From positions 51,704,872 through 51,768,871 of the forward strand of contig NC_134844.1 of NCBI RefSeq assembly GCF_965363235.1: a DNA stretch of 64,000 nt, in the 5' to 3' direction. Origin of the DNA: Mytilus galloprovincialis. Taxonomy: Eukaryota > Mollusca > Bivalvia > Mytilida > Mytilidae. Below, one piece after another: positions 8,856 to 64,000 of the stretch (its first letter is position 1; each line of letters starts with the position of its first letter). The notes beneath the pieces were generated by a model. That model saw nothing but the letters and a program-made list of their open reading frames with translations, did no database searches and was not told the origin of the DNA. The position numbers and the translations under genes are program-made.

Positions 8856-8969
8856 TGAACGTCAGTAGGCAGTACCGGATTGGAAATTGCTTAAGTGTAA
8901 CAATTTCTCCAGGTCAAAAGAAGTTTAAAGCAAACCCGTGCGAAACGAAGTTCAAACCTTTGTGTACTG
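8856..8969 (+). CDS. Gene 1 exon: CTLD1 second half
   Basis: Acceptor TTATTCAG and donor GTAAGA; phase 1 at both ends, 114 nt. It encodes a segment beginning VNVSRQYRIGNC with cysteines in GNC, NPC and the final PLC, the spacing of C2, C3 and C4 of a C-type lectin-like fold. It matches the gene 2 exon 57492-57605 in length and nearly throughout in residues. An N-glycosylation site (NVS) lies near its start. Confidence 0.85.
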
Positions 8970-21962: not shown

Positions 21963-22005
<43 letters not shown>

Positions 22006-36962: not shown

Positions 36963-37035
36963 ATGTCGAGCACTGTTTATCACATGTCTTTTATTTGCAC
37001 ATTTCTGCTAAATGTATTAGTTGTCCATGCTGAAG
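36963..37035 (+). CDS. Gene 2 exon 1: start codon and signal peptide
   Basis: ATG at 36963, then 24 residues with a hydrophobic core (FICTFLLNVLVV) and a likely cleavage site after HA. Ends in phase 1 at donor GTAAGTAAG. There is no earlier in-frame ATG of similar quality, and the methionine at codon 8 would shorten the signal peptide. Confidence 0.85.
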
Positions 37036-46000: not shown

Positions 46001-49000
46001 TAAATTATTCTTATCTAACACAGCATGTGGGAGAAACAAAGAATAAATTCAATATTATACTCAATAACCATCGTTCGTGGTACAAAACCAACAAAAACTG
46101 TCAAATTCATGTGCGACATGTACATTGAACTACAAACGTTTCTTAACTTCTACATCAGATTTCACCTGGATAGATGCACGTTTGACGAAGCTAATTTGTC
46201 TATCGAAATATTGTGTATATTTCTATTGCATTCTATTGCATTCAGAAGATTCAGTATAGGACTTATAATGCCAACCACTTACAATGTTCAAAAAAACTTT
46301 AAATGCTTAGAAAATGGTGGATTTTAACATTCTTGCTCATGTAGAAAACTTTACTTGTATTGATTGTCAATCCTGTTCTTACTACATGTAACAAGAACAT
46401 GTAGATTATTGAAAAGCAAGTTTTTCCTTAATTTGTTTCTTACCTAGCTCATTTAAAAAAAAGATAACGTAAGTTCACAGTATAACAACCATACATGTAT
46501 ACTTATGTGTACTCTAAAGGTTCTTTTAATATTATGATAATTAAGTTATTAACATCTGAAGTTAGCCTTTTCGGTTAAAAAACGTTTGTTTTACACGTGA
46601 CACTCGTCGTCTTGATTAGGCAGATACACATCAGGCGATGTTTATAACCAATTAGTTAGTGATGGGATTTTGGTACAATTTGTACAACAATTGAGATATA
46701 TATGTGATCTTTTATGACACATATATTCAATTGACAATTTCAAGAATTCGTGTCTGTAAGTGAGAAAATAACAGGGGTGATTGGCCTTCTTCTTTAATTC
46801 AATACACATGTTGTACTATTGTTTTTTTTTCAGCAAAAATCTCAACTGGATATCATTCCAATCGTAATTATACATGGAAAGAGGCAAAAAATCGCTGTAA
46901 AATGATAGGGTTACTTGATAAAATACAAGTCCCACACAGTGAAGGACAATTGGGATGGGTAGATGCGTCTGTAGAATACTCCCCATGGGTTGAATATCAA
47001 AGTAAGTGATTATTGATACAGGTTTAGAGTTATTTCTTATAGTTGTTTAACTGAGGGGCTAAGATGCCAGGAGGACATTTAATCTCATCAATCGGAAATG
47101 AAGTAATGAAGCAATGACTAAAAAAAATAAAAGATTAACAGACAAACAAAAGTAAGGAAGCCTTGTCTACTTTTTACAATTTGTTACAACAAATTATAAA
47201 TTTTATATAACAAATTATTAATTTGATATAACAAATTATTAATTTGATATAACAAATTATTAATTTGACATAACAAATTATTAATCTGATGTAACAAATT
47301 ATTAATTTGATATAACAAATTATCAATTTGATATAACACATTATAAATTTGATATAACAAATTATTAATTTGATATAACAGATTTTCGATTTTGATATAA
47401 CAAATTATTAATTTGATATAACAGATTTTTAATTTGATATAACAGATTTTTAATTTGATATAACAGATTTTTAATTTGATATAACAGTTAGTTACTCGAT
47501 ATTGATTTCGTTATTCAATATCCAACCGGTTGATAGCAGTCGGTTTGATATTCAAATGAAGTTGCAAATCCTAAAAAATATAATATTTGATAACATTAAA
47601 AGCATGACTTGTATAGTTGAAAAGAGTAAAAATATGCACAGGAAATCGTTTTATGACCCTTCAAGTTGTCTTAAACTCTCGTTGTACTCGAATATAAACC
47701 CTTATCAATGCTTATGTAAGTTGCATGTTTGTCTTTATGTAAATTAAATATGCAGTTTTATCAATAAAACGACATCAAAACTGTTATTTTATATCTTATA
47801 TTTCTTAATACAAAAACAAAAAAAAAAGATAGGTCTAGAAGCATTAAGAAAAAAATGAGGTTCATATATACGGAAAGCACCCAGAAAAGAAATATATAGT
47901 GAAAACATATAGTGAAAACCTACCTATATCAATAACGATGCGACCCCCTGTTCTTTCAATGTCAATAAAATTCGACAAAATCATAGATACTGTATATAAT
48001 ATCTAAAGGATTTCTCAGAACAATGTCGTCTTCGATATCTGTGAAGTGCTAAGATTGCCACTTTTCTGCACGATGGGAAGTTTACCCAAATTCCTTTTCA
48101 GTCACGTTTGTATCTACCTATTAACTAAATGTATGTATAAAAATAGGCCGATAGAGAAATCAGGGGGCTCTCACAATTGCCCTGTACCCTTTGTCCTGAC
48201 ATTCTAAGCCCTCCGTAGATATCCGTATTTCTTTTTTTTTGGAATTCCATTAATATTTCTATTTCTGTTTCTTTATATTTCTAGAGTTATCGGTTTTCCA
48301 TTTTGTTTGAAGAAATGTATATATTATATAATTACATCTTTGAAGTCGTTTTATTGATAACAATCTATTGTACATAAAGACAAATATGCAACTTACAAAA
48401 ACGGATTATATTCGACAACGAGAATTTACGACAGATTAAAGGGGTCATTAAACGATATCCTACGTAATTAAGTAGTCCTCTTAACTATAAAAATCATACT
48501 ATTAATGTAATCAAGTATATTTTTTTTATATAATTTTCAACTGAACCGACTGCTAGCACCTTGTTGGATAATTGAATATCGAATATAGAATAACGAACCA
48601 GCTGCTAACTTCACATCCTTATTTTTATGGAATCATTATATTGCTGTTACACCAAAACACCCTTATAATGTTTCTACCTTCAACACACCAACATCTAAAA
48701 AAAAAAACATTACAATAAATCATTAGATTTGAAAAAACCAACTCTCTTGTTTTACATATCTACTACGACTTAAATAAAGTTAAGCATACAATGGTTAGCG
48801 CTATAAAACCAGGTTTAATCCACCATTTGCTACATTTGAAAATGTCTGTACCAAGTCAGGAATATAACAGTTATTGTCCATTCGTTTTTGATGGGTTTTG
48901 TCATTTGATTTTGCCATGTGATTATGAACTTTCCGATTGGATTTTCCTCTGAGTTCAGTATTTTTGTGATTTTACTTTTTCCCGTATCTGTATATCTAGT

Positions 49001-52000
49001 AATATGATTGTAGGTTTCATCTTAATAAACGTATGCTTATTATATTCTAGATTGCTTGTATGTTAAGTCAAAGTTCATTGATAAACATACGCGTGTTACA
49101 TATGGTGAACAGTTGCAGCAGTGCTTGCACTTTTGTGGAGACTATAACTACATCGGATTACAGGTAAGCTCATTATCTATGGTATTATATATGTTTGGTT
49201 TGAAAAAATTCCAAGTCAGTTATTTGTTTTGTATAACCACTTCAATAATTCCAGGATAATAAGCAGATTTAATTGTCATGTGTATCTATTGATACTGTTT
49301 GAAAATGGTTTTGGCTGGACGATATGTTATGACTGATCGTTTGTAGGCCAAATAAGTATAAAAATTACCTGTCCATACCATCATTGTCATGAACATTATA
49401 TAAAAAATATTGTAAAATAATTGTATAACATTACTTTATGACTATTTGTTACAATATGTATTTCTCACAGCACAGATGTTAGAGATGACAAATTGCATCA
49501 TGGCGTTTGACCTTGTTACATAATTAAGTTGAGCAAAAATAGCATTGTTAGTCAAGTATTGTACTTCGTCAGTTTGCTAGGATATATTTTGGTTACATGA
49601 ATTTATATTAGGGAGTACAAAATGTGTTCGTACATGTAATACCTTTTTTTCTTTTTTCATTTTGTTCTATTCTCTACATTTGGATTAGACACCCTATTAA
49701 CAAGATTAAGAAACTGAACTCATAAATGACATATTTCCGGAAATTGGTTAATAAGTTTTGAATGTTCTAATTGATACCGGAGTATTTTTTTATAAATTTA
49801 TTTTCTTTTAAACTGAACCTTTTGTTTACGAAATATGTTATAAATTGCAAACCCTATCGAACAAAAACATAAACAACAATTTAGCAACTGTGTTATGCCC
49901 AGTGCTTCAATAAGTACGTAGTACACAAGACACATTACCCAATTTATGATGGAATCAATACATTGATTGATTCATCGGGTTAATCGGGTTAGAAACAAAC
50001 ACACATTTTCATTGTATTGTACATATATGAATATAAAGGCAACAGTAGTATACCTCTGTTCGAAATTCAGAAATCGATTGAGAGAAAAAAGCAAAATCCG
50101 GGTTACAAACTAAACTGAGGGAAACGCATCAAATATAACATTAAAATGTAACACACACATAATTTTAATGTAGCAATGGCCTTATTCCTGACTTAGTACA
50201 TGACATTTTAGGAAGAAAAAATGATGGGTTGAACCTGGTACTTCAGTTCTGCCACATATCTTATAGTCGGTACAAGTGTGTCAATATATTTATCTTATTT
50301 AACTTTTTACGTAAGAATAATTTTTAACTTAGTCATATGAAGTTTACCTTTATTTCGTTATTCTTAAAGGAGTTACTGTATATTTTGTTTTTGTGTTTGA
50401 AGAAATGATTTCAACAATTGTGTTTGGACTGTAACACCCTCGTTATTAAAAAGTATTTATCATTAAATTTTTAACGTTTTTTCGAGAGGAAAAAAATGAA
50501 ATCACAACCTACAGTTATTCCTTTTAACTTAATACTAAATTCCAATTTTAAATAGTAAGTTATTAAAAAAAATTGATGAAGTTGATGAAATAATGTCTAT
50601 GATCAGATAGACAGAACATTTTTAGGCAACCAGAATTCAAACGTTTTACATCAAAAATTAAAATTTTTTAGAATTAAATAAAATTGAGAAAGGGAATGGG
50701 GAATGTGTCAAAGCGACAACAACCCGACCATAGAGCAGACAACAACCGACGGTAACCAATGGGTCTTCAATGTAGCGAGAATTCCCGCACCCGTAGGTGT
50801 CCTTCAGCTATCCCCTAAAAATATGTATACTAGTACAGTGATAATGGACGTCATACTAAACTAAAGTTTAGCTTACTATTATTTAATCAATTATTTCTAT
50901 TTACACACTTTATATACACATTAATAATTTTATAATTTATCTTATTGTTTTTTTTACAAGCAAAACAATTGTTCCTGTTTGAGTGTTTCTGAAATAGGTA
51001 ATACAACAGTTGAAGCAGCTTGTAATCAGAAAGAGACATGCCGTGGTGACAAGTATGCCTACTGTTCATACCATGTGAACGACAGCACTAGTCAGAACAA
51101 TTTTGTTGTCTACAAAAAAGGTAATTAAACACACATATCTTACAGTGACAATAGAAGGCATGTATGAAGTATATAATACCATTGTAAGATTCACAGTATC
51201 ATGTTTTTTATAATAAAAAAAAGTAAAAATAAACAGTAATCGAAAGGTTTATCTGTTATATTTTGGTTATGTAAACTATGTCTTTTGTGTATCGTTTATT
51301 GATAAACGAGTGTTTACATAATCTGTACAAAGGTAAGCTCTGAGCCGACATTTTATTTGTTTTATAAAAAGAATTGGCTACTAAAAAATCTCTTCACAGA
51401 TACCAAGATTAAATTTTGTATTTACGCCAGACGCGCGTTTCGTCTACGTAAGACTCATTAGTGACTCAAATCTAAAAAGGTTAAAAAGGCCAAATAAAGT
51501 ACGAAGTTGAAGAGCATTGATGATTAAAACTCCTAAAAAATCAAAGGTTTTGTAACACTAACATGATTAAGTGCAAAATATCACAATTTCATGTAGCGGA
51601 GTATGGTTTATTTTTTAGCCTACGCAAACGATTTTAAACAGTATTCGGTCTAGAATGTCAATACGTTAAACACATTTAACTCTAAATCCAGTAAAAAAGT
51701 AAAAAGATAAATTCAAATGTAGTCAATACTTCATTTGACGATACGTTTATATATAATCAATTAACAAGCTTGAAATTTTATAGCCATTATTTAATATATA
51801 TATATTTTAAGAAATGATTTTTTTTCGTGTGTGTTATATGTTCAAGAGTCCCTTACAATGACAGTCATTTGCTGTACGGGGAAAAAGGGTGAATACGCTT
51901 GGTATTTACTAAATAAAAGCTTAAGTATAATGTAAAACATGTAAACATTCTTAGAAACTTCAATCGATCATAAGTAGACCTGTGAATAGGTCTCGTCGTA

Positions 52001-55000
52001 TGAAGACCTGTCATCAGGTGTCACCTTGTCTGGGGCATACTTGTCCAAATAGCTGGCCAAAATCAGACTTGTCAATAGGTCTGCAACAGGCCTGAAAAAG
52101 CAGACCTAGTTTTGGGTCACATCGTCCTACTTCATTGTTTATGTTGTTTGCTTTTAATTTATTAATATATGTTTTAGAAAAATAAATTTATCTGAATATT
52201 GAGCACCATGGAGGTCAAGACGTTACACAGTTCGTAGACTCGACGAAGGAATTCTATTTCTGAGAATGACAAATTAGAAAAAAATATCTGACTCAGTTTC
52301 TATACAGTCTGGTACAAAACAAATACTAATATGCATAACCAATTATCACGTCATCATCTGGAATACTATAAAAATGGATGTTTACGTGTGATTTTTCTTT
52401 TATGTATTTACTTACATTTTAGCAATATTTCTCTGATATGTTTCAATAAATGCAACCATCTATCAACGTCAGTTTTAGGTTCTCAGTAATAAAGTACTCT
52501 CAAAGAAAAGAGCACAAGTACACACTGTTTTGTTGGATGTATTTTTCTTTGTATCCTTCTGATGAGTTAAACCTTTTCAGCTGATTTATATGGTTCGATC
52601 TGATGTTTGTACTGTCACACCCCTGTCCTAGTTAAAAGGGGGGTTGGCATTCTGCTTACATTTCAACCCATCCACGTTCTGTTTGTATGTGTTGTTCCAA
52701 GTCAGGAGCCTGTAATTAAGTAGTTGTCGTTTGTTTTTGGTGTTTTATACTAGTGTTTGTTTTTCGTTCATGTATTCGTTTAAGGGGGTACAGAACACAT
52801 AAGAAAAGATAACTCTTACTCATAGTCTGATTCCTTGCTACGTTTTAAAATTATGTGCAATATGCAAGCTTTTAAAAGATCATGATCAGAATGTTTACAT
52901 TATTGCTAAGACCAGCTGTACACCCTTTGTTATTCATTTAATCTTTTAATTCGTTTAAAATTACTCATTTTCCATAAATGAATCTTCAATGAGACATAAT
53001 AGGGAAATTTCAAAGTGAAATAAATTTACCAAAAGAAAACCAGGACGTTAGAAAAGGAGGGAAACAGAAAGAGAAAGGACCATAACTGTTTTCGTTTTTT
53101 ACTTGGCAATGCCTAGGTCTTAAATAAAATGAAATAAAGTACAAAAGTAAAAAGTCTAAGGATGCTACCATTTGATTTTAGGGGGAAGGGGGGGGGGGGG
53201 GGGGGCTCTAGGATTTAAAATTTTGTCCTGCATTTTTTTTTATAGTTGTAATCATCCTTAATGTCCTGCATTTTTTATTTTTCATTCTTTAAGGACCTGC
53301 AATTTTCATTAGTTGACTGAAATTGTTTTCATATTTTTAATTGTCATCCTGCTTGTTATGCCAAATTACTGATCCTGCCTTTGTTTGTTCAAAAGCCTGT
53401 CTTGCCTTTTTTCAAATTTCATCCAAGCCCCCCACCCCCCTCTCCTCAAATGAGGGTGGATAGGACCTTTATCGGGACTCCGGGGTCGAATGTTTTAAGG
53501 TCAGGATTTAAGGATTGACCCTTTCGAGATCCGGAAATTCTTTTTTCGAATTTTGGGATGTCGGGATTTAAATTTATTTAAATTCGGGACGTCGGGATTT
53601 CGTTTTTTTAAGCTGAGATTTCGGGATCAGGACCCCTCCTACCCCCCCCCCCTCTCAAATGGTAGCTCCCCCCGACAGTGAAAATTTTAACCAAATAAAT
53701 AAGAATCCCTGGACAATTGCACAATGCTTATGTTTGTAGATCTTCTTATCAAATTGATTAAATCAAATCTGAATTGACTCCACAATACATTTTTTTTTAA
53801 CAAAACATGTAGTTTAGTTTTTAAGGAAATACACTATGGCCTTAGTAATACATGTAGTAATGTAAAAAAGATTACGAATAATTTATAATTCTATAATTGC
53901 TGTCATATTTATTAAATTGCAATTGAATATTTTATTGCGTGATTTATATTCATGTAAAACGTTAGAAGATACACAGAGGGATAATGAACCACCAGTGCAT
54001 CATTTACATGTCACGGAACAAGGCAAAAGGAAGAAAAAAAACGTCCTTTTCAAATGTTTTCAGTCCAAAAAACACTACACATATTTTTGCTTTCTTAATT
54101 CATCTGAATAAAACAAAATATATCTTTCTAGTATCTTCTTCCAACCTTTATCCTGACAGGTGTCGAAAATTAACGGGTGTCTTCTATTCTGTCCGCAATT
54201 TTAGGGAAAGTAAAGTCTATGTTTAGAATCATAGTTGAAACTGAAACTACACATGTATGATATAAATAGAACATGTCATTTTCGCTTTATCAAATTTAAA
54301 TTTTGAAGGGATAGCAAAATTTGTTATTTTCTTTTGCTGTGCTTTTGTCATGTTAACTCGTGTATCTTTCCGAATTTTTTTTATCAAATGCAATTTTGAA
54401 ATAAATATAAAAAAGAAAGTGTGGTGTTATTGCAAGTGACAAGTGAAAATGATTCTTCTCAAGTCACAATTCAAGATTTTTACTAAATAGAGTTATCATT
54501 CTCTATAATAATAAGGGGCCCCAAAAATAATGTGAAACTTGTAACTGCCGTGCTTTTAACTAAATACTAGTTGTATCTAATTTTCATAACCTCTGCAGAA
54601 ATACTAAAAAAATTCTATGTTTAACGAACTTAATTTAACAGTATAAGGATTTTGCACAGTCGGCTCTATTTCATCTCTCATGAGCCGTGGTTCTTTGCAC
54701 CAATGGTTTTGTTGTCAAGTCTTGAACTGTATATTTTTGAATCTGGCCAATAGACCACTAAATTGAAAATCTTGATCATGTAAAGCATCTGTCAACTTTA
54801 AAGCTTTTCCCTATGAATCATGTGTATTTTTGGCGTGTCATGCTTTTAATTTCAACAACTCGTATCTCAAATCAGAAATCAGTTACATCTTTTTTTTGCC
54901 CCTGCAACTGAAAGTCGGGGGGTGGTTATTCCCTTTTCAAACAATTTTATGTGACTACATGTCCATTATTTATTCCGTGTGCATTGAATGGGTTGACATG

Positions 55001-58000
55001 TCATAAATATTGCTATATTGTTGTATGGTCGATTAAAGCTTGTGTAATATGATTTCATACTGACTACATAAAAGTCATGGCCCGTACAAGTGTTTCTTAC
55101 CAAAAACCACAATTATCGTCCTTGAGGTCAAAGTTCAAGGTCACATGAAGGTCAAAATTTTAAGAAGGCAAACCACCTCATGATGATACATCCACATGCC
55201 AAAGATGTAAGCCCTAGGTCAAAAGGCAACGAAGTTATGGCCTATATGATTGTGTTTTTCACGGGAAAAAACCCATAAAGTTGACCTTGAGGTCACATTT
55301 GAAGGTCACACAAAGGTCATCGTGATGCAAGACGCTTAACCCTGTGATGATACATCCACATGCCAAATAGCTAAGGCCTAATTCAAAAGACGAACAAAAT
55401 TATGGCCATTATGTACTTTTTGAATAGATTTTGCTCTTATTTAATGAACCAATTTGAGGGTGGGGCGTAATTTAAACTTAAATACCAAAACATCTAACGG
55501 TTAAATTTTTTGAAAAATTTGCCAGAACAACCGACTAGTATAGCACTCCAAATGCTTAGTTTTATGAAAAAATTAAACGACACATTTTTTTTCAAAAAAA
55601 AAGTTCTTCAAATACTAGAAGCACAGCATTCACTTTTCGGGGCTGATTCTGAACCCCTTATTAAAGTTCTGGCAAAATTTTAAATCCGGAATAAAAAACT
55701 TACAAGGAAGGGGTATCAGTGAACTAATATTCACCTCAGCTATCATTATCAGCTATGCTATTGTCAATTTAGGATTACATTTCAAAAATTTTAACAAATT
55801 GAACCCTATACCCATATTTCAGAAACTTCCAATTTTGGCCGATAATAGTATGTAAAGATGCCATATTTGAGTTGCCAAATCTTTTAAACCTATGGTTCAA
55901 ATCTTTTAAAAATTTTACAAGATGTTTAGGTTGGCCTAGTTTATCAATGAAAAAATATTAAGAAAAATTAAACGACAGGATTTTTTTGGGGTATAGTGTT
56001 GGGTACCCCCTTAATGTAAAAAAAAACCCGTTATTTTCACATTTGATTTTTTTCACATTTGTCATTTCGAGGCCTTTAATAACTGACCTACCGATTTAAT
56101 CTCTAATCATTGTTAACGGCCGAACATTGACCTTAGGTGATATTATCTGTGTCATGTGGTCTCATATGAACAGTTGTCCTATTAGTCATCACATCACAAC
56201 TTCTTTTGTATATACAAGTCATACAAGTGAGCGGTTTAGCTAGCTATAAAACCAGGTTCAATCCACCATTTTCTACATTAGAAAATGCCTGTACCAAGTC
56301 AGGAATATGACAGTTGTTATCCATTCGTTTGATGTGTTTGGACTTTTGATTTTGCCTTTTGATTTTGGATTTTCCTTTATGAATTTTCCTCGGTATTTTT
56401 GTGTTTTTACTTTATACATACGAATTGGTGCTTGACAATTACAAGATTTTATCCCTTTTCCGATACAGGAATTGCGTCATCCATATGATCTCTAATTGGA
56501 ATGTTTTGCTTACCCCAAATCAAAATAAATTAAAAGGTCGATTTAAATAGTTTTGTTTTTGCTTTGATTCGAAAGTAATACCTTTATCAATTAACATGAC
56601 AAAATGTATAAGGAAAGCTGTGCCTTAACGATTTCCAAAACTTGGCTCTTTTAACAAGATTTACTATATCGACCGAAATGTTCGTTTAGTTTACTATAAG
56701 AACGTGCCATATCAGTAAAAAGTAATATCACAAAAATACTTCACTCCGAGGAGAATTCAAAACGGAAAAACCCCAATCAAAAGGTCAAACACATCAAACG
56801 GATGGATTACAGCTGTCATATTCTGACATGGTACATGCATTTTTTTATGTAGAACATGGTAGATTGAACCTTGTAGATAAGTAGTATGCTAGAGGTCCAA
56901 ATTCAACCCAAAAAAAGAGCACAATATTTGCAAGTAGCTACGTCCTTTCATTGGACTTACACAAATCTGTCATATTCATTTTTGCCCTTACATATCTAAA
57001 TAATTACCGGTCGCTGATACATTTGAGCATATTTCTTTTTATAAACATACATAGCAGGGTATATGTTTTTTCGCTTTTAGGTAAGTAAAGTTGTCTAAAA
57101 ATATTTGTTTAGTCTAACAGACATTCCATTGGAAACTGTGTAATAAACAATGCTACAACATCTGCGCCTGTTGAGAAAAAAATATCCGATACCTTTATTT
57201 CGTTAGGTACAAATACTGTAACATATACTCTAAAGGAAAATGTACATGTTGCACTATTCTTGTTAATCACATTGAAGGGGTAACATACACAGAGTGACAA
57301 CCCTGGATCAGCCTCTGAGGATTGGTTTCGAAACCAATATTCTTTATAATAGTTATAGTTAATTCACTAAAAAATCAATATATTTGAAATATATGCTTTC
57401 AGAAAACACTGTTTTGTGTAAAGTTAACATAAAGATATAGGCATAAAAAGGTATATTGATCGTTGTTATTATTGTAATTGTTATTATTCAGTGAACGTCA
57501 GTAGGCAGTACCGGATTGGAAATTGCTTAAGCGTTACAATTTCTCAGGGCACCAAGAATTTTAAAGCAAACCCATGCGAAACGAAGTTCAAACCTATGTG
57601 TAGTGGTAAGAATGTGTTATGTAATCATCTGTTGTCCCTTCAATTAAAAATAGTTAGCATTTTGTTTTATAATGTTAAGAACCTCGCAAATTGTTTTCAT
57701 TTATTTGGTTCTTTCCATATTAAATAGCATCACTAGTTTGAACGAGAAAGTAGCATATTTCACTATGAAACTATTAAGTTAAACTAGAACAAACATAAAA
57801 ATTACTTAATGAACTCCGTATTACGAACACCTGTGATACTATACAAATAGAGCCTTTGTATGAGGTCGATACAAGGATATATTGACCTGAAAGAAGTATA
57901 TTAACTGAGGACGAAGTCCGAGGTCAATATACTTTTTTGGGTCGATATATCCTGTATTGACCTCATACAAAGGCTATATTTGTTATATTATTAATTTCCG

Positions 58001-61000
58001 ACCATGTTTGTATCAAAATCGTCATTTAGGTTTGTTGGAACTTTATAGATATTACATTGTCTCCTTGACAATAACAACATATTAGTTGTTATTTCATTTA
58101 CTTTTTTTTTTGACATCTTATGTATTTGAAAAGTTTTTTTCGTCAAATAATCGATCACTGATATCATTTGTTTCAAAACGTTAAACAATATCCTGAAATT
58201 CATTACATGACGTCACAAAGTATATCGGTGTTTAGATATTCTAAAAATAACCGTGCAATATGCTTTTTGCCGGTCAATATGCTTTTTGCTATCCGCCGTT
58301 TTCTCTCTACCTTCGAAAATATAGTTTAACATGTGACTATTCCTATACGAATCAAATTTGTTAAAATATACGAATTAATAATATATACAAGTATTCAGCC
58401 AATACAAACTACCAATAGACCAATTAAAATATAAATTGAGTTGTAAACTTTTGCTGACTTGCATAGTGTCCGAAAATGTATATACTATGAAAGTAAGTAC
58501 TCGGTTCCACACTCTTAATTTCATTGTACATAACATTTTATAGACTAACCGATACGTATCAGCGGTTTAAAGAAGTTTTCATTTTGATTCATTTTGCGTT
58601 GAAAAAAAAAATCCATTGGTAAACCCATTTAAGAAAATCCCCATGGAAATGTCCATTGGGCAAAATAATGAAATGAATGGCCATGGGCAATAATAAATAA
58701 ATCTTTATTCCTGAAAAAATAATGAAGCATCTGAATTACTGACGTCACTTGTCAATAGTAATGACAGCAACTTAAATTTATTTACAGTATGTGGTTATAT
58801 ATTTATGTAACATTTACATAAGTGCATTTTGTTACTCAAAACGTGTCATCCGCAGGTTTCATATCAAACTGGTTTTAAAATGAGAAATTGTTTTATTTTT
58901 CATGTGTTCGTCGTCTGGATATTTCGGGGTTGATTATCAAACAATTGTTTTTATTTTCAAGGAATAAATTCAAGACCTATCTATAAAGACGACCTGTCAA
59001 ATGATTGGGCTAGCTCTTTCAACAAATGTTCGTCATATGGATTTGCTACATATAATATGATCAAACAGTCAAACAATGTTTACCGAGGAAACTTTTGGCT
59101 GGGTAGTCTAAGAAGGCCAATAATCCAACGTTCTGCAGGTATGTTTTATAAACAGTCTTTATGATATGATGTTTTTTACTGAACTTGTAAAAGATTATGG
59201 GATAACAAGGAAATAATATGGAGATATGTGATAGTATATTGTTTCTTTCACAACTTAATAGACAAGCTACATTTTGCATATAGACAAATCGAATGTATAC
59301 ACATCTATTAATAACAAAGCAAGAGACAAAAACACGTATAGTATATTATTAAAAAATACTATTAAAACAGCTCTAATACTACCAAAACGGCATGTGTCAT
59401 ACTGATGACGTCGTCCTGGTGATATAAATCACGTGATCTATATTGCTTTTCGGCCCGGTCCAATATTTCCAAAACATATATTGTGCATGTAATTCAGGAT
59501 TCATTGCCAGTCCGTATTGGAAATATTGGCCCTATATTCACATCATTGCCAGTCCGTATTGGAAATATTGGCCCTATATTCACATCATTGCCAGTCCGTA
59601 ATGGAAATATTGGCCCTATATTCACATCATTGCCAGTCCGTATTGGAAATATTGACCCTATATTCACATTTGATGTATGTAATACAGGATTCAGAACAAG
59701 TCTGTATTGAAAAAAGTTTAATAAAAATGTTGTGAACTGGCTGTTTCTGTATTGGCACTGGTATAGATTCTCGGTCAGCTGTATTGGCCCTCGACCCGTC
59801 AACTTCCTCATTTTCAATACGCTCAATGTTCTTTATTATGTCATCTTCAAAGTTACTTAAATAAAAGTGTGACGGGATTGCTTCCCTTAGGAAAACTTCG
59901 TGCTCTCCGGTTACAAAAGGTTTAATTTGTGTGATCTGTAGAATGATTTTGTCTACCGTACTTAAAATAGCAACGATAAGATAGAGAACGTACACATTTA
60001 GTTTTTTACTCTTCGTAATAATATACAAACATGTAATTTCTTTACCCTTTACACATGTGTTCTCAGTTCTAAACTTACGCACATGATACACGAATAAGTC
60101 ATGATAAGTTTAATTCAAGAAGAGAAAAAAACACTCTGATTCCGACAAAACACTCTTTCAGACTGACATTTACCAACACGCGACATTTCTGTAATTGATA
60201 ACATATGTGCTACTTTTGTCTACACCAAACAATCGGATCTTTTATTGAAACCGACTTGTTTCATTATACATGTGTTACTGCAGGATTTATTTAAGAACTA
60301 CTCAGGAAGCATTTATTACCTGTTAAGTGTGTGTTCAGCTTCTAAGATGAAGTGACTATGTTAAACGCATCTATCTCATCTAACATTAGATAAAGGATAT
60401 AGCTGAGTCTAGCTCATATTTTGACCTAAATTTTGAAAGTGAAATTGAGATTTGATTGTGACCTATTATTTATGAGAAGAGGAATATTTAAAGCTTTTCA
60501 TTTTTGAACATGCAATGTCTATGTAGTTTAACCTGCATCATGAGCATAGGAAGTCTATATCTTGCAGTTCATATGATATTCAAGAGCTTGTGTTTCTTAC
60601 TTTTATTTTTATGAAGGGGGATTACTGGTTACAAAAAATATATCAGACTTATAATTTGATACGTCAGAATATCAAAGGTACCCAGTTCTACTTGGTACAT
60701 GTAGGGTTAAAGCCATCCCATCGAAGGGTTGTCAGGACGACTACACAGATGTTCACGAACTTGTTTTTATTGTCAGAACTACATCGCGTCCTTTTTATAG
60801 TGTGTTTTGTATTTACCATTAATTAAATTATGACTCAAATAGTTTTCTATGTTCAAATCAAATTAGCCGATTCAGGTGACAAATCTAATTAACCGATTCA
60901 GGTGACAAATCAAAGTAACATATAAAATGTGAGGGGATAGCATGAACTCCAAAAGGAACGAAACTGCGTGATACGCGTCTTTTTCTCCGCACGAACCAAC

Positions 61001-64000
61001 ATTAAGTAAAAATTACATTATTACAAATACTTTAACAAACTATTCTCGATACAGATTGGTTCAAATTGCGGTTTCCCATAATCTAAAATTAACAGCTACA
61101 TATGAGTAATACCTGTTACCTGTTCCCTATTCTATAAATTCCATCTTTTCCAGATGAACAAATTCAGTTAAGAATATCATTTGAAGTGTTAAATTCCTTG
61201 TGTCGTATCCTATGGCTTCGGTGGCCGAATGATCTAAGTAGTTACTACTTTAATCACTAGCCAGTGAACACTGAGACTGGGAGTTCGAACACGGCTTGTG
61301 TGGGTGCACTAGACTCCAATCTTAATTGACTAGGATTGTTAGTTTTCCTATCGATGGTCGGTGGTTTTCTCCGGGCACTCCGGCTTCCTCCACCAATAAA
61401 AAATGGCTGCCACAAAATAGCCTAAATGCGGTGCTTAAAAGTGGCGTTAAAACACCAAACATCTAAATCAAATGTGTATAATCCTTTATAGATTAATAAG
61501 CACTTCAGGCAATTCAATTTATTGTAAAATTTCTTCCCTTCATTTGTATATTATGATAAATCTTTTCATTTATTTTGTTATTTATGTAACTATAAAAACA
61601 AATTGTTCAATAAACATTAACATGAAATCGTTTCGACCACCGTATTCCCACATAAAGTGTAAATCACTGGTATATCATTTACATCATCATTTAAATATTC
61701 AATAACAGTGTTTTTCAACATAAAATTGACTTCATTATTTTTTAAACTATGCACAGGTAAATACAAATTATGTATGCAGCAGTCGGCAGAGCTTATTACA
61801 ACTGTATGAGTTGATTTAATTTCCCTTCAAATTAGCTTTAAGTTTGGTTCAGGTTGCTTGATGATGTCAAAAACTTTGTCTATACTAATTTAAATGATTT
61901 TTATATTGGTTTTAAATCAAATAATTTGGTTTTTACACTCATCCTTAACATTTTCATTGGCATTTGTAGAAATTGTCTGCCCTTAACCTTTGCATTTTGT
62001 TTGACCGAAATTGCACCATACTCATTATCGACAATCGGGCAAATGTCACTCGTTTGGCATCATGTAGTTATAACAAAAGGAACAGAAGATACATATGCCG
62101 TCACAATATACTCTGGTAATAAACAAATAAAATATGTTTAGCAAATATTACACATGTATCAATTTTTTAATATAATAGACGCAGAACCAAAATATTGTAT
62201 TGCTGTGATCATACGGAATGACGTTCACCAAGTATATAGATATGTTAGGCCATGTACCGATGAACTACCAGCTGTATGTGCTGACACAGATATGTCATCT
62301 GCAGACAATAGTAAGTTATATGTGTCATTTTCTGTTTGAAAGACGAATACAATTGTTTAATTGCAAATTAATTGTATTTACTATCTCTTAAGCATACGTT
62401 ATATCTGTTAATCGTTATATTGGTTTTGTCAGATACTGATAGATACAAAGGTACCAGGATTATAATTTAATACGCCAGACGCGCGTTTCGTTTTCATAAG
62501 ACTCACCAGTGACGCTCAGATCAAAATAGTTATGCCGCCAAACAGGTACAAAGTTGAAGAGCATCGAGGACTCAAACTTCCAAAAAGTTGTGCCAAATAC
62601 GGCTAAGGTAATCTATTCCTGGGCTACTTACGATAAATATTTTTATATGTTTTTTTTATTCTTGACACTTAAAAAACACTTTGTCTACACAAGAATAAAA
62701 TTATAAGCTGTTGAACTGATATGATATGATTTAACAATATTAATATAGTATAAGTACTGATATTTTTAGCTAAATTTTTGTATTAACAAAAGGTTTATAT
62801 CTAACATAATCAACAATAACAAAGAGAGTATAAACATTTATCATGTTTATACACATTTCAGATATTATACTCATATCACTGGTTATAACTGCCGTACTGG
62901 CTATTATGGTTATTATTGCTGTGGTCGTATTATACAAAAGGTAAGATTTACTATTGACATTATTAATGGAAATGAAAAAGGAAACCGGGAATGAATTGAT
63001 GGAACTGCCATCATGTCTTTTTTCTCTCAAAAGGATGTTGCATTTTAAGAACAACTTGCGTTATCATATGTATCGAAAATAAATATATTTTTACGTATAA
63101 AGCGTCGTAACTACAATCCCCTTCCCTTTCCTGAATGTGACCTACCGAATTAGACTATTTACCGGATTTGTTATCACATAAGCAACACGACGGGTGTCGC
63201 ATGTGGAGCAGGATCTGCTTACCCTTCCGGAGCACCTGAGATCACCCCTAGTTTTTGGTGGGGTTCGTGTTGTTTATTCTTTAGTTTTCTATGTTGTGTC
63301 ATGTGTACTATTGTTTTTCTGTTTGTCTTTTTCATTTTTAGCCATGGCGTTGTCAGTTTGTTTTAGATTTATGAGTTTGACTGTCCCTTTGGTATCTTTC
63401 GTCCCTCTTTTTGTAACGTTTTTGTAAAATACATTTTATAGAAAAATAATCATGCTGAAGCTCTAGATCATATCCTTTTTTCCTTCTTTTAATTTAGTAA
63501 GAATATAATGGTTTCTTACATTGAAAACTCTTCAGATCCAGTTATTTGTTTCCTTTTTTTCAAATTGACTAAAACATAACTCTGCATCTACAAACACACT
63601 TTTGTACATTTCAATGCTTTCTAGTCTGCATTTATCTCTTCGATTTTGGTTCTTTTTGGTGAATATCAACTCTGCAACGTATTTTTGATGTTTCGGATTT
63701 TCACACTTTTAAACATGACTGATGAAGCATTAATATTCGAATTGTGGATCTGGTGTAGATAAAATGGTACATATGTATCGTTGATATCTTTCCATGGTAT
63801 TAACTTAATTATTGTCATATCTAAACCCATGTTCCTTCTACTTGTAACTCACATCCTTGTTTTTTTTTCTTCAATAAGACGGACCTCATTGAGATCTAGA
63901 CATAACCCATTGGTTCCAAATAATGGAGTAGCATACGCTCAAGTCAACAAACCTACAAAAGAGAAAGCACATGTCCATTCTGGCGAACCAACTAGAAACA
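36963..64000 (+). CDS. Gene 2: CTLD-WSC-CTLD type I receptor with ITIM-like tail
   Basis: Gene-level span, running past the right edge. Exons: 36963-37035, 46834-47001, 49051-49163, 50961-51120, 57492-57605, 58962-59138, 62179-62310, 62862-62940 and 63879 onward. Protein in order: signal peptide, CTLD1 first half (cysteine C1), WSC domain with eight cysteines, CTLD1 second half (C2-C4), CTLD2 (C1 in one exon, C2-C4 in the next), one transmembrane helix and a cytoplasmic tail with VAYAQV, an ITIM consensus. All introns are phase 1 except the one inside WSC (phase 0) and the one after the helix (phase 2), and every junction keeps the frame. Skipping the two WSC exons would keep the frame and give a continuous CTLD1. 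N-glycosylation sites: NYT, NTT, NDS, NCS, NVS. No EPN/QPD/WND sugar-binding motif. A pattern-recognition or inhibitory receptor role is inferred from domains. Confidence 0.85.
37036..38475. other. Gene 2 intron 1, first part
   Basis: AT-rich, no exon seen. A GC-richer patch near 37780-37880 (CAGCGAAATTTATTTCGCGA, with CGGTGCTGACGTTGCTGACG) is unexplained. Confidence 0.45.
38476..39840 (+). repeat. Bivalve AGCTCACCTG repeat, left arm of a fold-back
   Basis: Starts TTTTTAGCTCACCTGACCCA and continues TCATCACTTGGCGTCCGTCG, GTGTCCGACGACCCCGCC and GGTTGTTGGGTTGCTGCCCC, all of which appear in reverse at 41159-42164. The downstream part (39530-39830) contains AAGGTCAAGGTC words. High-copy non-coding element; no transposase is seen. 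Confidence 0.8.
39841..41158. other. Spacer between the two AGCTCACCTG arms
   Basis: AT-rich; no gene. Stops before AAACTAGAGGCTCAAAGAGC, the inner end of the right copy. Confidence 0.5.
41159..42164 (-). repeat. Bivalve AGCTCACCTG repeat, complete inverted copy
   Basis: Runs from CTAGAGGCTCAAAGAGCCTG to CTGGCCAGGTGAGCTAAAAA, about 1 kb. Within it, a block of about 130 bp from GCCATGG(C)(A/G)GCCATCTTGG is present twice (41440 and 41943). With the copy at 38476 it makes an inverted pair with a span of 3.7 kb. Confidence 0.85.
42190..42960 (+). repeat. Tandem array, about 160-bp period, four units
   Basis: Unit landmarks GAAGGTTGGG, GAAGGTTGGG, GAAGGCTAGG and GAGGCTGGGA begin at about 42348, 42511, 42673 and 42830. 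Each is followed by GGGGTT-like and GGGCCAAAAAGGGCCAAAAA-like blocks. Units have diverged considerably, so the array is old. Non-coding. Confidence 0.8.
43000..43885 (+). repeat. Tandem array, about 160-170-bp period
   Basis: Landmarks TTATTGCC-like followed by TATAATAGATAGA(G/A)AGA and AAAAATGATCAG recur at about 43311, 43471, 43642 and 43811. The left end (43010-43180) resembles the start of the AGCTCACCTG repeat (AATCTTCTCTTCTGAAACAA, AGATGGCCGACGTGGCTAAA), so this array is probably an internal part of that family. Confidence 0.7.
43900..44340 (+). repeat. Interspersed family A/D, longest copy
   Basis: Runs from the AAAACGTTTAAAGCCGCTGC region through GTCCTAAGTAAGGAATCTGA, GACCGTTGGTTTTCCTGTTT and GGGGCCCTTTATAGCTTGCT to GAACTCATACCAAATCTTCT. 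It links the words of the shorter fragments at 35090, 52600 and 19016, showing they are pieces of one element. Confidence 0.75.
44341..45940. other. Gene 2 intron 1, nothing recognised
   Basis: A 97-codon frame at 45330-45623 is hydrophobic and AT-driven, with no homology that I recognise. TAGTTTCGNAATC-type words recur at 45317-45385. Confidence 0.45.
45941..46330 (+). mobile_element. Penelope-like element fragment, GIY-YIG region
   Basis: The frame includes HVGETKNKFNIILNNHRSWY, which fits the VGET...R.NNHRS core of the GIY-YIG endonuclease domain at the end of Penelope-like retroelements. The following residues continue in another frame, and no reverse transcriptase is seen nearby, so it is a decayed fragment. 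Confidence 0.55.
46331..46833. other. End of gene 2 intron 1
   Basis: Ends with a polypyrimidine tract (GTTTTTTTTTCAG) before exon 2. Nothing else is recognised. Confidence 0.5.
46834..47001 (+). CDS. Gene 2 exon 2: CTLD1 first half
   Basis: Acceptor TTTTTCAG, donor GTAAGTG; phase 1 at both ends, 168 nt. Encodes YTWKEAKNRCKMIG, the first helix region with C1, and GWVDASVEYSPWVEY, which fits the WIG-like strand and the following aromatic residues. It contains exactly one cysteine, so the other three of the fold must come from a later exon (57492-57605). Confidence 0.85.
47180..47489 (+). repeat. 21-bp minisatellite in gene 2 intron 2
   Basis: About 14 units of ATAACAAATTATTAATTTGAT with scattered changes; the last units carry CAGATTTTTAA. 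It abuts the left end of the TIR element that follows. Confidence 0.9.
47491..48601. mobile_element. 1.1-kb fold-back element with long TIRs
   Basis: Left arm 47501-47740 and right arm 48372-48600 are imperfect reverse complements over about 240 bp, with well-kept words TAGCAGTCGGTT, TAAGTTGCAT(G/A)TTTGTCTTTA and TCGTTATTC(A/T)ATAT. No transposase is seen in the centre. Arms are noticeably diverged, so the copy is old. Confidence 0.75.
48602..48799. other. Intron 2 sequence, nothing recognised
   Basis: No feature seen. Confidence 0.4.
48800..48990 (+). repeat. Interspersed family C fragment
   Basis: Contains AAAACCAGGTTTAATCCACC, ACCAAGTCAGGAATATAACA and GAACTTTCCGATTGGATTTT. Confidence 0.75.
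49051..49163 (+). CDS. Gene 2 exon 3: WSC domain, first part
   Basis: Acceptor TATATTCTAG, donor GTAAGCTC; starts phase 1, ends phase 0, 113 nt. Encodes NCLYVKSKF with the first WSC cysteine, then GEQLQQCLHFCGDYNYIGLQ, the family's C...C...Y.GLQ block. The domain continues in the next exon. Confidence 0.85.
49164..50033. repeat. Intron 3 with a copy related to 6890-7690
   Basis: About 49830-50033 matches parts of 6890-7000 and 7581-7690 (TATAAATTGCAAAC, CTTCAATAAGTA, TTCATCGGGTTA). The first part is unrecognised. Confidence 0.55.
50034..50250 (-). repeat. Interspersed family C fragment
   Basis: Reverse of the 36195-36540 words: GGCAACAGTAGTATACCTCT, CTGAGGGAAACGCATCAAAT, TATTCCTGACTTAGTACATG. 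Confidence 0.7.
50251..50960. other. End of intron 3
   Basis: A short interspersed word set (ATGTGTCAAAGCGACAACAA, CCGACCATAGAGCAGACAAC) at 50700-50800 suggests another common repeat. Otherwise nothing. Confidence 0.45.
50961..51120 (+). CDS. Gene 2 exon 4: WSC domain, second part
   Basis: Acceptor TTTTACAAG, donor GTAATT; starts phase 0, ends phase 1, 160 nt. Encodes QNNCSCLS, then EAACNQKETCRGDKYAYCSY and a VVYK end, giving the last five of eight WSC cysteines. With exon 3 it forms a cassette with phase 1 at both outer ends. WSC domains are cysteine-rich modules found in fungal cell-wall sensors and in animal polycystin-1 and Kremen proteins. Confidence 0.85.
51121..51389. other. Intron 4, first part
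   Basis: Nothing recognised. Confidence 0.4.
51390..51540 (+). repeat. Interspersed family B fragment
   Basis: Contains CGCCAGACGCGCGTTTCGTC and AAAGTACGAAGTTGAAGAGC. Confidence 0.75.
51955..52110 (+). repeat. Short region of repeated AGACCTGTNAATAGGT words
   Basis: AGACCTGTGAATAGGTCT, GACCTGTCATCAGGTGT and GACTTGTCAATAGGTCTG follow each other within 130 bp, some as small inverted repeats. Purpose unknown. Confidence 0.55.
52600..52800 (+). repeat. Interspersed family A/D fragment
   Basis: Contains CCCCTGTCCTAGTTAAAAGG, CCAAGTCAGGAGCCTGTAAT and AGTAGTTGTCGTTTGTTTTT. Confidence 0.65.
53159..53675. mobile_element. Element with GCTACCATTTGA ends and a long G tract
   Basis: GATGCTACCATTTGATTTTA followed by a run of about 20 G near 53183-53206 on the left, and C runs followed by TCTCAAATGGTAGCTCCCCC on the right, form inverted ends. 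Inside, the words TCCTGCATTTTT and GGGATTTAAATT / GGACGTCGGGATTT recur. Non-coding. The G and C runs could pair or form quadruplexes. Confidence 0.65.
53676..55117. other. Intron 4, nothing recognised
   Basis: Two overlapping short frames at 53917-54226 have no domain. A GGGGCCCCAAAAATAATGTG-like word near 54513 may be a family A/D remnant in reverse. Confidence 0.4.
55118..55450 (+). repeat. AAGGTCA-rich tandem, two units of 164 bp
   Basis: TGATGATACATCCACATGCC is at 55181 and 55345. Each unit holds CCTTGAGGTCA and GAAGGTCA words. Similar AAGGTCAAGGTCA words occur at 39530-39730. Confidence 0.75.
55451..56089. other. Intron 4, nothing recognised
   Basis: No feature seen. Confidence 0.4.
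56090..56215 (+). repeat. Interspersed family A/D 3' end
   Basis: Diverged copy with TTGTTAACGGCCGAACATTG, TATCTGTGTCATGTGGTCTC and ATCACAACTTCTTTTGTATA. Confidence 0.6.
56218..56420 (+). repeat. Interspersed family C copy
   Basis: The clearest start of this family: CATACAAGTGAGCGGTTTAG, AAAACCAGGTTCAATCCACC, ACCAAGTCAGGAATATGACA. Confidence 0.8.
56750..56880 (-). repeat. Interspersed family C fragment
   Basis: Reverse copy with AAACGGAAAAACCCCAATCA, GGATTACAGCTGTCATATTC and ATGGTAGATTGAACCTTGTA. Confidence 0.75.
57100..57491 (+). other. Intron 4 end, paralogous to 8480-8855
   Basis: Aligns with gene 1 up to the shared acceptor TTATTATTCAG. Non-coding conservation shows that the duplication covered introns as well as exons. 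Confidence 0.8.
57492..57605 (+). CDS. Gene 2 exon 5: CTLD1 second half
   Basis: Phase 1 at both ends, 114 nt. Encodes VNVSRQYRIGNCLSV, NPCETK and KPMC, giving C2, C3 and C4. It completes the fold begun in exon 2 and has the same length as gene 1 exon 8856-8969. Confidence 0.85.
57844..57982. repeat. Fold-back hairpin, apex like that at 7729-7871
   Basis: The left arm CAAATAGAGCCTTTGTATGA pairs with TCATACAAAGGCTATATTTG at 57963-57982. The apex reads GAGGACGAAGTCCGAGG, close to GAGGGCTGAAGGTCCCGAGG in the other hairpin. Confidence 0.85.
57848..58385. mobile_element. Insertion in gene 2 intron, with fold-back hairpin
   Basis: Compared with gene 1 (GTGATACATACAAGTATT near 9170), gene 2 has about 540 extra bases between GTGATACTATACAA and ATATACAAGTATT. 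TATACAA on both sides looks like a 7-bp target duplication. The left end is a hairpin (57844-57982). The right part repeats GGTCAATATGCTTTTTGC twice near 58255-58290. A 70-codon minus-strand frame inside has no recognised domain. Confidence 0.65.
58962..59138 (+). CDS. Gene 2 exon 6: CTLD2 first half
   Basis: Acceptor TTTTCAAG, donor GTATGTT; phase 1 at both ends, 177 nt. Encodes NDWASSFNKCSSYGF with C1 and GNFWLGSLRRP. Same length as gene 1 exon 10237-10413 with conservative differences. Confidence 0.85.
59139..59500. other. Intron 6, first part
   Basis: The first 90 bases align with gene 1 after 10413. Nothing else is recognised. Confidence 0.45.
59501..59668 (+). repeat. 42-bp tandem repeat, four units
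   Basis: Units begin TCATTGCCAGTCCG at 59501, 59543, 59585 and 59627, almost identical. The period is a multiple of 3, so several frames stay open on both strands. They are artefacts of the repeat. Confidence 0.9.
59627..60091 (-). CDS. Uncertain antisense reading frame (possible exon 59627-59935)
   Basis: A 154-codon frame on the minus strand within gene 2 intron 6. A hydrophobic stretch (NVYVLYLIVAILSTV) is followed by a charged part (EHEVFLREAIPSHFYLSNFE, DDIIKNIERIENEEVDGS). A possible acceptor, TCATTCTACAG, would start an exon at 59935, and the same TTCTACAG is kept in the gene 1 intron near 10845, although the frame is lost there. The last residues run into the 42-bp repeat. I do not recognise a family. 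It could be an exon of a minus-strand gene, an old element or chance. Confidence 0.25.
   Translation of the reverse strand: MYHVRKFRTENTCVKGKEITCLYIITKSKKLNVYVLYLIVAILSTVDKIILQITQIKPFVTGEHEVFLREAIPSHFYLSNFEDDIIKNIERIENEEVDGSRANTADRESIPVPIQKQPVHNIFIKLFSIQTCSESCITYIKCEYRVNISNTDWQ
60092..61213. other. Intron 6, nothing recognised
   Basis: A 20-bp repeat AGCCGATTCAGGTGACAAAT / AACCGATTCAGGTGACAAAT occurs in tandem near 60866-60910. The 78-codon frame at 60590-60826 has no domain. Confidence 0.4.
61214..61470 (+). mobile_element. RUDI-like V-SINE
   Basis: A-box-like TGGCCGAATGA near 61222, B box GTTCGAACA at 61283, then GGTGGTTTTCTCCGGGCACT at 61361 continuing CCGGCTTCCTCCACC, the V-SINE central domain, and a tail ending AAAAGTGGCGTTAAAACACC. 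Unlike the copy at 18984, it is not interrupted. Confidence 0.8.
61471..61969. other. Intron 6, nothing recognised
   Basis: AT-rich, no exon seen. Confidence 0.4.
61970..62115 (+). pseudogene. Possible relic or alternative exon before CTLD2b
   Basis: CATTTGTAG acceptor and GTAATAA donor bound a 146-nt open stretch. In one frame it encodes ASCSYNKRNRRYICR, like the end of a C-type lectin-like domain; in another, VWHHVVITKGTEDTYAV, like a laminin-G strand. Neither frame fits the phase-1 junctions of exons 6 and 7, so it cannot simply be spliced in. Gene 1 has no clear match. It may be a degenerated exon or chance. Confidence 0.3.
62179..62310 (+). CDS. Gene 2 exon 7: CTLD2 second half and short stalk
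   Basis: Acceptor TATAATAG, donor GTAAGTT; phase 1 at both ends, 132 nt. Encodes AEPKYCIAVII, RPCTDELPAVCAD, with C2, C3 and C4 of CTLD2, then a stalk of about ten residues. The extra cysteine of the gene 1 stalk is absent. Confidence 0.85.
62311..62861. repeat. Intron 7 with family B fragment
   Basis: Family B at about 62440-62620: AGGTACCAGGATTATAATTT, CGCCAGACGCGCGTTTCGTT, AGTTGTGCCAAATACGGCTA. The rest is AT-rich. Confidence 0.7.
62862..62940 (+). CDS. Gene 2 exon 8: transmembrane helix
   Basis: Acceptor CACATTTCAG, donor GTAAGA; phase 1 to phase 2, 79 nt. About 24 hydrophobic residues (IILISLVITAVLAIMVIIAV), then YKR. Equivalent to gene 1 exon 27466-27544. Confidence 0.85.
62941..63878. 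repeat. Intron 8 with family E fragment
   Basis: Family E at 63184-63430: CAACACGACGGGTGTCGCAT, CCTTCCGGAGCACCTGAGAT, TGGGGTTCGTGTTGTTTATT, GACTGTCCCTTTGGTATCTT. A 77-codon frame across it is a repeat artefact. Nothing else is recognised. Confidence 0.7.
63879..64000 (+). CDS. Gene 2 exon 9: cytoplasmic tail (runs off the window)
   Basis: Acceptor TCTTCAATAAG; phase 2 start; still open at the window edge. The tail begins RRTSLRSRHNP and carries GVAYAQVNK; V at -2 and V at +3 of the tyrosine satisfy the ITIM consensus (I/V/L/S)xYxx(I/V/L). ITIMs are known to recruit SHP-type phosphatases after phosphorylation. That function here is inferred. Further motifs may follow outside the window. Confidence 0.8.

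What the first reader, a model, noticed from the sequence alone, without database searches (positions are those of the whole stretch)
46834..57605. WSC domain cassette inserted inside a C-type lectin-like domain
Exon 2 carries only the first CTLD cysteine and exon 5 carries exactly the other three, while exons 3 and 4 between them encode a complete eight-cysteine WSC domain. The cassette has phase 1 at both ends and sits in a phase-1 intron. CTLD2 of the same gene has a phase-1 intron at the same place, so this looks like exon shuffling into an ancestral intron. Skipping exons 3-4 would keep the frame and restore an uninterrupted CTLD1, so one gene could make two different ectodomains.
Basis: partly seen in the sequence, partly recalled or inferred. 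Interest (0 to 1): 0.8.

Follow-up and report, generated by a model that had tools for sequence, protein, structure and literature searches.

The report
WSC domain nested inside lectin domain

Summary
The stated splice coordinates check out: e2 46834-47001, e3 49051-49163, e4 50961-51120, e5 57492-57605, phases 1-1, 1-0, 0-1, 1-1. With a predicted exon 1 (36984-37035), a second CTLD-like domain, a TM exon and a tail running 218 bases past the window, the gene reads as a 444-aa type I receptor without a stop.

WSC identity is firm through relatives: 2 of 7 paralogs pass Pfam's cut-off, though the window copy does not. CTLD identity is weaker.

It is not peculiar to this gene. Fourteen e2-like exons lie on one contig. 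The full order e2-e3-e4-e5 was seen in six copies, three more are partly seen, and one has lost e4 and looks decayed. The second CTLD has no cassette in 5 of 5 copies. So the insertion predates the family. Skipping e3-e4 keeps frame, but nothing shows that it happens.

New beyond the finding: the WSC stands where a CTLD's long loop begins, that region is shortened in both CTLDs, and the tail carries ITIM-like motifs, suggesting an immune-type receptor. My searches found no report of the nesting.

The parts
36984..37035 (+). exon 1 (predicted), signal peptide MSFICTFLLNVLVVHAE, ends phase 1 (in-frame ATG also at 36963)
   Evidence: donor AG|GTAAGT; similar first exon upstream of paralog P7 (L042:2959-3013)
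46834..47001 (+). exon 2: N half of CTLD1 (W..A...C motif, then W-V-D ... P-W-V-E-Y), phase 1-1
49051..49163 (+). exon 3: first half of WSC (3 Cys), phase 1-0
50961..51120 (+). exon 4: second half of WSC (5 Cys, C-x-C start), phase 0-1
57492..57605 (+). exon 5: C half of CTLD1 with three Cys, phase 1-1
58962..59138 (+). exon 6: N half of CTLD2, phase 1-1
62179..62310 (+). exon 7: C half of CTLD2, phase 1-1; no WSC-like exon in the intron 59139-62178
62862..62940 (+). exon 8: transmembrane helix (NIILISLVITAVLAIMVIIAVVVLYK)
63879..64000 (+). exon 9 (start): cytoplasmic tail; continues 218 bases beyond the window to a stop (C7:51769089); VAYAQV and VEYSHV motifs
8856..28261 (+). downstream part of neighbouring paralog P2 (e5, c2a, c2b, TM, frameshifted tail); its e2 and e3 lie left of the window and its e4 is missing

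Best explanation
The gene encodes a single-pass type I cell-surface receptor: signal peptide, a CTLD-like domain whose sequence is broken after the second strand region by a complete WSC domain, a second uninterrupted CTLD-like domain, a transmembrane helix and a tyrosine-rich tail. Shown: exon borders, open frame, recurrence in paralogs. Strongly supported: WSC homology. Moderately supported: CTLD homology. Inferred: before the family expanded on this chromosome, a two-exon phase-1/1 WSC cassette entered a phase-1 intron lying where the CTLD long loop starts. That region is short in both CTLDs, so the loop may have been lost before or apart from the insertion; the WSC now projects from that place on a compact CTLD base. 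The canonical Ca2+/sugar motifs are absent from CTLD1, so I expect the WSC head, or a protein surface, to bind the ligand and the tail to signal through phosphotyrosine, probably by inhibitory (ITIM-type) motifs. The function steps are inference only.
For: 444-codon frame without stop across 9 exons. Borders fitting the same phases in P1-P9 as far as each was held (the script admitted only borders of those phases, and the ends of P7 e3 and P8 e4 were reset by hand). WSC: Pfam 4.1e-10 and 8.8e-7 in 2 of 7 copies; hhalign 38.0, 0 of 100 shuffles as high; phase-0 intron just before C-x-C as in L005 and L006. CTLD1: 6 of 8 PDB profile hits at E up to 10 are C-type lectins (CLEC5A 0.03, lithostathine 0.096 and 0.15, Mincle, CLEC4D twice), 4 of 7 with the earlier alignment; hhalign to four canonical CTLDs 28.1 vs 11.7 +- 3.0, 1 of 100 shuffles as high; CTLD1 vs CTLD2 20.4, 0 of 100. 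CTLD1 intron: e3 in 5 of 5, e4 in 4 of 5 copies; CTLD2 intron: neither in 5 of 5. No EPN/QPD/WND in 7 of 7 CTLD1 and 5 of 5 CTLD2 rows. Strand-2 W to Cys 2: 26-28 residues in 7 CTLD1, 19-22 in 5 CTLD2, 36-39 in 4 canonical CTLDs. Tail: two ITIM-pattern sites in P1 and in P8 (reached in 0.7% and 1.3% of letter shuffles).
Against: Pfam Lectin_C matches 0 of 7 CTLD1 rows. The other 2 of 8 PDB hits are contactin-3, at E 0.041 and 0.048, better than all CTLD hits but one. The CTLD2 profile hits no C-type lectin in the PDB (0 of 4 hits) and is weak against canonical CTLDs: 18.5, 2 of 100 shuffles as high. CTLD2, without any cassette, has an even shorter loop region than CTLD1, which speaks against WSC replacing the loop in one step. 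The first WSC alignment hit nothing in the PDB. The four best WSC matches of the genome (L001-L004) are in one open frame without the intron, so the two-exon layout is not universal. e4 evolves fast (dN/dS 1.09 in P3-P4). One ITIM pattern, as in P6 and P7, is common in shuffles (18.6% and 15.6%). P1's CTLD2 holds the letters EPK, a sugar-motif variant, just before a Cys. No structure was predicted; no transcripts.
Confidence: 0.64

Rival explanations
1. e2 is only an N-terminal extension of the WSC domain and e5 a separate small Cys-rich piece; CTLD1 no longer exists as a fold, so nothing is nested.
For: No Pfam Lectin_C hit in 7 of 7 rows; the W-to-Cys-2 stretch is about ten residues shorter than in four canonical CTLDs; P-W-[VI]-E-Y at the end of e2 resembles the lead-in of WSC domains, and Pfam's WSC match in P6 and P8 begins at residue 4 of W-V-E-Y.
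Against: Cys order and the W..A...C motif invariant in 7 of 7 rows; CTLD1 and CTLD2 match each other beyond all 100 shuffles; 6 of 8 PDB hits are C-type lectins; the intron place matches CTLD2 and, probably, canonical CTLDs.
Confidence: 0.25
2. Regulated skipping of e3-e4 makes a second receptor with an uninterrupted CTLD1.
For: Frame is kept; the cassette is phase 1 at both ends.
Against: Symmetric phase is expected of any shuffled cassette. Splice sites of e3 and e4 are ordinary; WSC Cys conserved; pooled WSC dN/dS 0.21-0.82 over six pairs. P2, which cannot make the full WSC, also has a frameshifted tail.
Confidence: 0.12
3. A recent insertion peculiar to this one gene.
For: None found.
Against: e3 seen at 10 of 14 e2-bearing places and e4 at 8 of those 10; CTLD1 identity of the other copies to P1 is 30-81%.
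Confidence: 0.01
4. The window copy is a pseudogene, so the layout has no meaning for protein.
For: The neighbour P2 is decaying; no expression data; exon 1 is only predicted.
Against: Nine exons join to 444 codons without a stop, with GT donors and AG acceptors; pooled dN/dS below 1 in six of six pairs for both CTLD and WSC exons.
Confidence: 0.05

Closest known systems
C-type lectin-like domain (Pfam PF00059), above all compact CTLDs with little long loop (compact class recalled)
   Same: Four Cys in order, W..A...C helix motif, W at the second strand, C-terminal C...C pair; an intron where the long loop starts, as seems the case in three canonical loci of this genome.
   Different: Not detected by Pfam; EPN/QPD/WND absent; the loop region is short and a whole WSC domain is set into it.
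WSC domain (Pfam PF01822)
   Same: Eight Cys in 6 of 7 copies, C-x-C, and the two-exon layout with a phase-0 intron before C-x-C seen in L005 and L006; 2 of 7 copies pass the cut-off.
   Different: Lies inside another domain; the window copy is too diverged for Pfam; L001-L004 have WSC in one exon.
Bivalve CTLD proteins with additional domains ('CTLDcps', PMC10140915)
   Same: That paper names WSC among the domains found with CTLDs in architectures unique to bivalves (passages read).
   Different: In the passages seen it reports combination, not nesting; 'intron' and 'long loop' and 'exon' occur 0 times in its main text. It screened with PF00059, which matches no CTLD1 row here.
ITIM-bearing C-type-lectin-like receptors of vertebrates (NK and myeloid receptors; recalled)
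   Same: CTLD-type ectodomain, one membrane pass, [ILVS]xYxx[ILV] motifs in the tail.
   Different: Those are mostly type II with one CTLD (recalled); here type I with two CTLDs and a WSC. Homology of the signalling part was not tested.

Membership tests
WSC domain (PF01822) | Profile match above the curated cut-off | tested here: inconclusive
   Window copy no match; 2 of 7 copies over 27.8 bits
WSC domain (PF01822) | Eight Cys including C-x-C | tested here: met
   8 Cys in 6 of 7 copies, 7 in P3; C-x-C in 7 of 7
WSC domain (PF01822) | Exon layout of WSC genes of the same genome | tested here: met
   Phase 1-0-1 with the intron before C-x-C in L005 and L006, two near-identical loci, and here; L001-L004 differ, WSC in one open frame
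CTLD (PF00059) | Profile match above the curated cut-off | tested here: not met
   0 of 7 CTLD1 rows; best CTLD2 E=0.052 in 1 of 4 rows
CTLD (PF00059) | Four Cys in canonical order with the W..A...C motif | tested here: met
   W15, A18, C22, W42, C68, C85, C93 invariant in 7 of 7
CTLD (PF00059) | Profile-profile similarity beyond shuffled columns | tested here: met
   CTLD1 28.1 vs 11.7 +- 3.0, 1 of 100 shuffles as high; CTLD2 18.5, 2 of 100; wrong-family controls 17 and 29 of 100
CTLD (PF00059) | Ca2+/sugar motifs EPN/QPD and WND | tested here: not met
   Absent in 7 of 7 CTLD1 and 5 of 5 CTLD2 rows; EPK in P1's CTLD2; many true CTLDs lack them too (recalled)
CTLD (PF00059) | Double-loop fold with both halves packed | not testable with these tools
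   By its stated rule the folding tool takes contiguous translations; the protein is spliced
ITIM receptor | [ILVS]xYxx[ILV] in a cytoplasmic tail after a TM helix | tested here: met
   P1 and P8 two each, P6 and P7 one each; TM and tail joined by splice borders in P1 only
ITIM receptor | Phosphatase recruitment on phosphorylation | not testable with these tools
   Needs biochemistry

The most novel reading that the evidence does not exclude
A family of tandemly expanded mussel-type receptors in which a WSC domain has taken the place of the ligand-binding long loop of a C-type lectin fold. The CTLD serves as a pedestal for a foreign binding head, joined to ITIM-type signalling: a loop-swap route to new immune receptor specificity, in a CTLD family that Pfam-based counts miss.
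Probability: 0.36. Interest if true: 0.68.

Novelty: new variant of a known kind. Interest (0 to 1): 0.5.

Why it matters
Domain nesting by symmetric-phase exon insertion is a standard proposal, but its marks seldom survive together (my judgement, not searched). Here the host intron, its empty counterpart in the same protein, a donor-type exon layout and a family of descendants are all present. If the fold is confirmed, a whole domain sits at the CTLD long loop, the part that normally decides ligand choice (recalled). It would also add a CTLD receptor family that surveys screening with PF00059 would not count by its CTLD1.

Tried and rejected
Considered a degenerate WSC half inside CTLD2 (open frame at 61970-62116, 'X'): best matches in the held loci only at E 0.36 or worse, no Cys-rich phase-1 exon in P1, and no WSC-like exon in 5 of 5 CTLD2 introns; rejected as chance.

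Considered P2 (left neighbour) as a natural cassette-free receptor: it keeps e2, e3, e5, c2a, c2b and TM, but the stretch matching 50033-57123, which holds e4, is gone and its tail exon has a frameshift.

Looked for a separate partner exon for e2 before e3: the e5 and c2b profiles list no hit in 47002-49050.

Papers: nine searches. 'WSC domain' + 'C-type lectin' + 'exon shuffling': 0 papers. 'WSC domain' + 'CTLD': 0. 'long loop region' + 'C-type lectin' + 'domain insertion': 0. The others are. Passages read in PMC10140915 and PMC4581086; PMC13114784 searched for five terms, none present. Others seen in search listings only.

A 300-second script gave no output (its alignment files remained) and was rerun in smaller form. 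A pattern script printed nothing and was replaced.

My draft had said the long loop was gone and replaced; in fact it is shortened by about ten residues in CTLD1 and more in CTLD2, which has no cassette. I lowered the best explanation from 0.68 to 0.64, the novel case from 0.42 to 0.36 and interest from 0.52 to 0.50, and raised the first rival from 0.22 to 0.25, for this and for the negative PDB result of CTLD2, which the draft had left out.
Full report
OBSERVATION. The window lies at C7:51704872-51768871 of a 1.38-Gb genome in 331 contigs. The stated exons are there with GT/AG borders: e2 46834-47001 (phase 1-1), e3 49051-49163 (1-0), e4 50961-51120 (0-1), e5 57492-57605 (1-1). Cys counts are 1, 3, 5 and 3. 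CTLD2 is c2a 58962-59138 and c2b 62179-62310.

WHOLE GENE. A signal-peptide exon was predicted at 36984-37035 with donor AG|GTAAGT, a TM exon at 62862-62940 and a tail exon from 63879 that ends 218 bases beyond the window. Joined, the nine exons read 444 codons to a stop. The first exon rests on a scan for hydrophobic starts and on a similar exon upstream of paralog P7, not on transcripts.

IS IT WSC? But the paralogs are homologous exon by exon, and 2 of 7 copies score above the WSC cut-off of 27.8 bits: P6 40.2 bits, E 4.1e-10, and P8 29.5 bits, E 8.8e-7. Profile-profile score to six canonical WSC rows of this genome is 38.0; 0 of 100 column shuffles reach it. Against the PDB the first, partly mistyped alignment hit nothing; the corrected one has a single hit, E=4.1, with a WSC-like Cys pattern (my reading). 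WSC loci L005 and L006, nearly identical to each other, have the same layout: phase 1 in, phase-0 intron shortly before C-x-C, phase 1 out. The four best WSC matches, L001-L004, are in one open frame, so this layout is one of at least two.

IS IT CTLD? Weaker. Pfam Lectin_C: 0 of 7 CTLD1 rows, 1 of 4 CTLD2 rows at E=0.052. The e2+e5 profile against all PDB chains gives 8 hits at E up to 10: 6 C-type lectins (best CLEC5A, 0.03) and 2 contactin-3 at 0.041 and 0.048; an earlier five-row alignment gave 4 C-type lectins of 7. The CTLD2 profile gave 4 hits, none a C-type lectin. hhalign to four canonical CTLDs of this genome: CTLD1 28.1 against 11.7 +- 3.0, 1 of 100 shuffles as high; CTLD2 18.5, 2 of 100; CTLD1 to CTLD2 20.4, 0 of 100; wrong-family controls 17 and 29 of 100. 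Those alignments held a few hand-typed slips. W..A...C, W, C, C, C is invariant in 7 of 7. No EPN, QPD or WND in 7 of 7 CTLD1 and 5 of 5 CTLD2 rows.

WHERE THE CASSETTE SITS. From the W of the second strand region to Cys 2 there are 26-28 residues in 7 CTLD1 rows once the cassette is taken out, 19-22 in 5 CTLD2 rows and 36-39 in 4 canonical CTLDs. So the loop region is shortened in both, more in the CTLD without a cassette; the insertion alone does not explain the loss. In three canonical loci on C13 the frame runs W-R-W-I-D-G and meets a phase-1 GT inside the G codon (3 of 3); Pfam hits there stop at positions 61-64 of 107. I did not read their downstream exons, and the GT is not a strong donor. 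The host intron may thus be older than the family.

FAMILY. e2-like exons occur at 14 places at E up to 0.01, all on C7, 12 of them between 51.60 and 52.03 Mb (one search adds none). At 10 of the 14 I saw e3 (P1-P10), and at 8 of those 10 e4 (P1, P3-P8 and, weakly, P10). The full order e2-e3-e4-e5 was seen in P1, P3, P4, P6, P7 and P8. P5 has e2-e4 but no e5 in the about 8 kb held after it; P10 likewise has no e5 in the held stretch; P9 has no e4 in about 6 kb after e3. P2 has lost e4. Of the other four places, three were held for 1.5 kb downstream, without e3 there, and one was not fetched, though an e4-like exon lies about 10 kb after it. In the five copies with both introns held, the CTLD1 intron has e3 in 5 of 5 (41.7-75.7 bits) and e4 in 4 of 5 (47.7-94.3 bits in P1, P6 and P8; 11.8 in P7); the CTLD2 intron has neither in 5 of 5 (at most 7.9 bits). 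The P7 e4 exon scores low but reads as a WSC second half with fitting borders. The border script admitted only borders of the expected phases, so it shows that such borders exist, not that no others do.

SELECTION. NG86 dN/dS over six pairs: CTLD exons pooled 0.21-0.40, WSC exons pooled 0.21-0.82, where two pairs (P1-P2, P4-P5) rest on e3 alone; the highest single value is e4 of P3-P4, 1.09; e5 dS could not be computed for P1-P4 and P3-P4. Synonymous changes are high in several pairs, so these are rough. They suggest constraint on both parts, looser on the WSC.

TAIL. P1: VAYAQV and VEYSHV fit [ILVS]xYxx[ILV]; P8 also has two, P6 and P7 one each. Two or more arise in 0.7% (P1) and 1.3% (P8) of letter shuffles; one or more in 18.6% (P6) and 15.6% (P7). 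P1 and P8 motifs sit at matching places, which is homology and not independent evidence. Only in P1 were TM and tail joined by checked splice borders.

MECHANISM. Most likely a cell-surface receptor with the WSC as projecting head on a compact CTLD base, a second CTLD below it, and phosphotyrosine signalling. Shown: gene structure and homologies as graded above. Inferred: fold, ligand binding, sign of the signal. Alternative splicing is possible by frame but without evidence.

LITERATURE. WSC together with CTLD in bivalves is already noted as a domain combination in PMC10140915 (passages read). Nine searches of the open library showed me no report of WSC nested within a CTLD. Subscription papers are mostly not in that library.

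Noticed in passing
window 8856-28261 and L047: Left-neighbour paralog P2: e4 missing by a deletion relative to P1 and a frameshift in the tail exon, other exons open; a decaying tandem copy.
   Followed up: yes
window 33047-33886: Two copies of a 419-bp unit in tandem, 99% matching, so probably a recent duplication.
   Followed up: no
window 47178-47486: 21-bp tandem array, 14.7 copies, in the intron between e2 and e3.
   Followed up: no
window 59501-59669: 42-bp unit repeated four times, 97% matching, inside the CTLD2 intron.
   Followed up: no
G000 C3:78.2-78.4 Mb, C5:70.9 Mb, C5:82.1 Mb, C9:90.96 Mb, C13:67.1-67.6 Mb: Local arrays of WSC exons; 129 matches listed genome-wide, a lower bound.
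   Followed up: partly
L060 / G000 C7:51.78 Mb (P10): e2 of P10 has no Cys where the first CTLD Cys is expected, and its e4 is only weakly recognised; a diverging or decaying copy.
   Followed up: no
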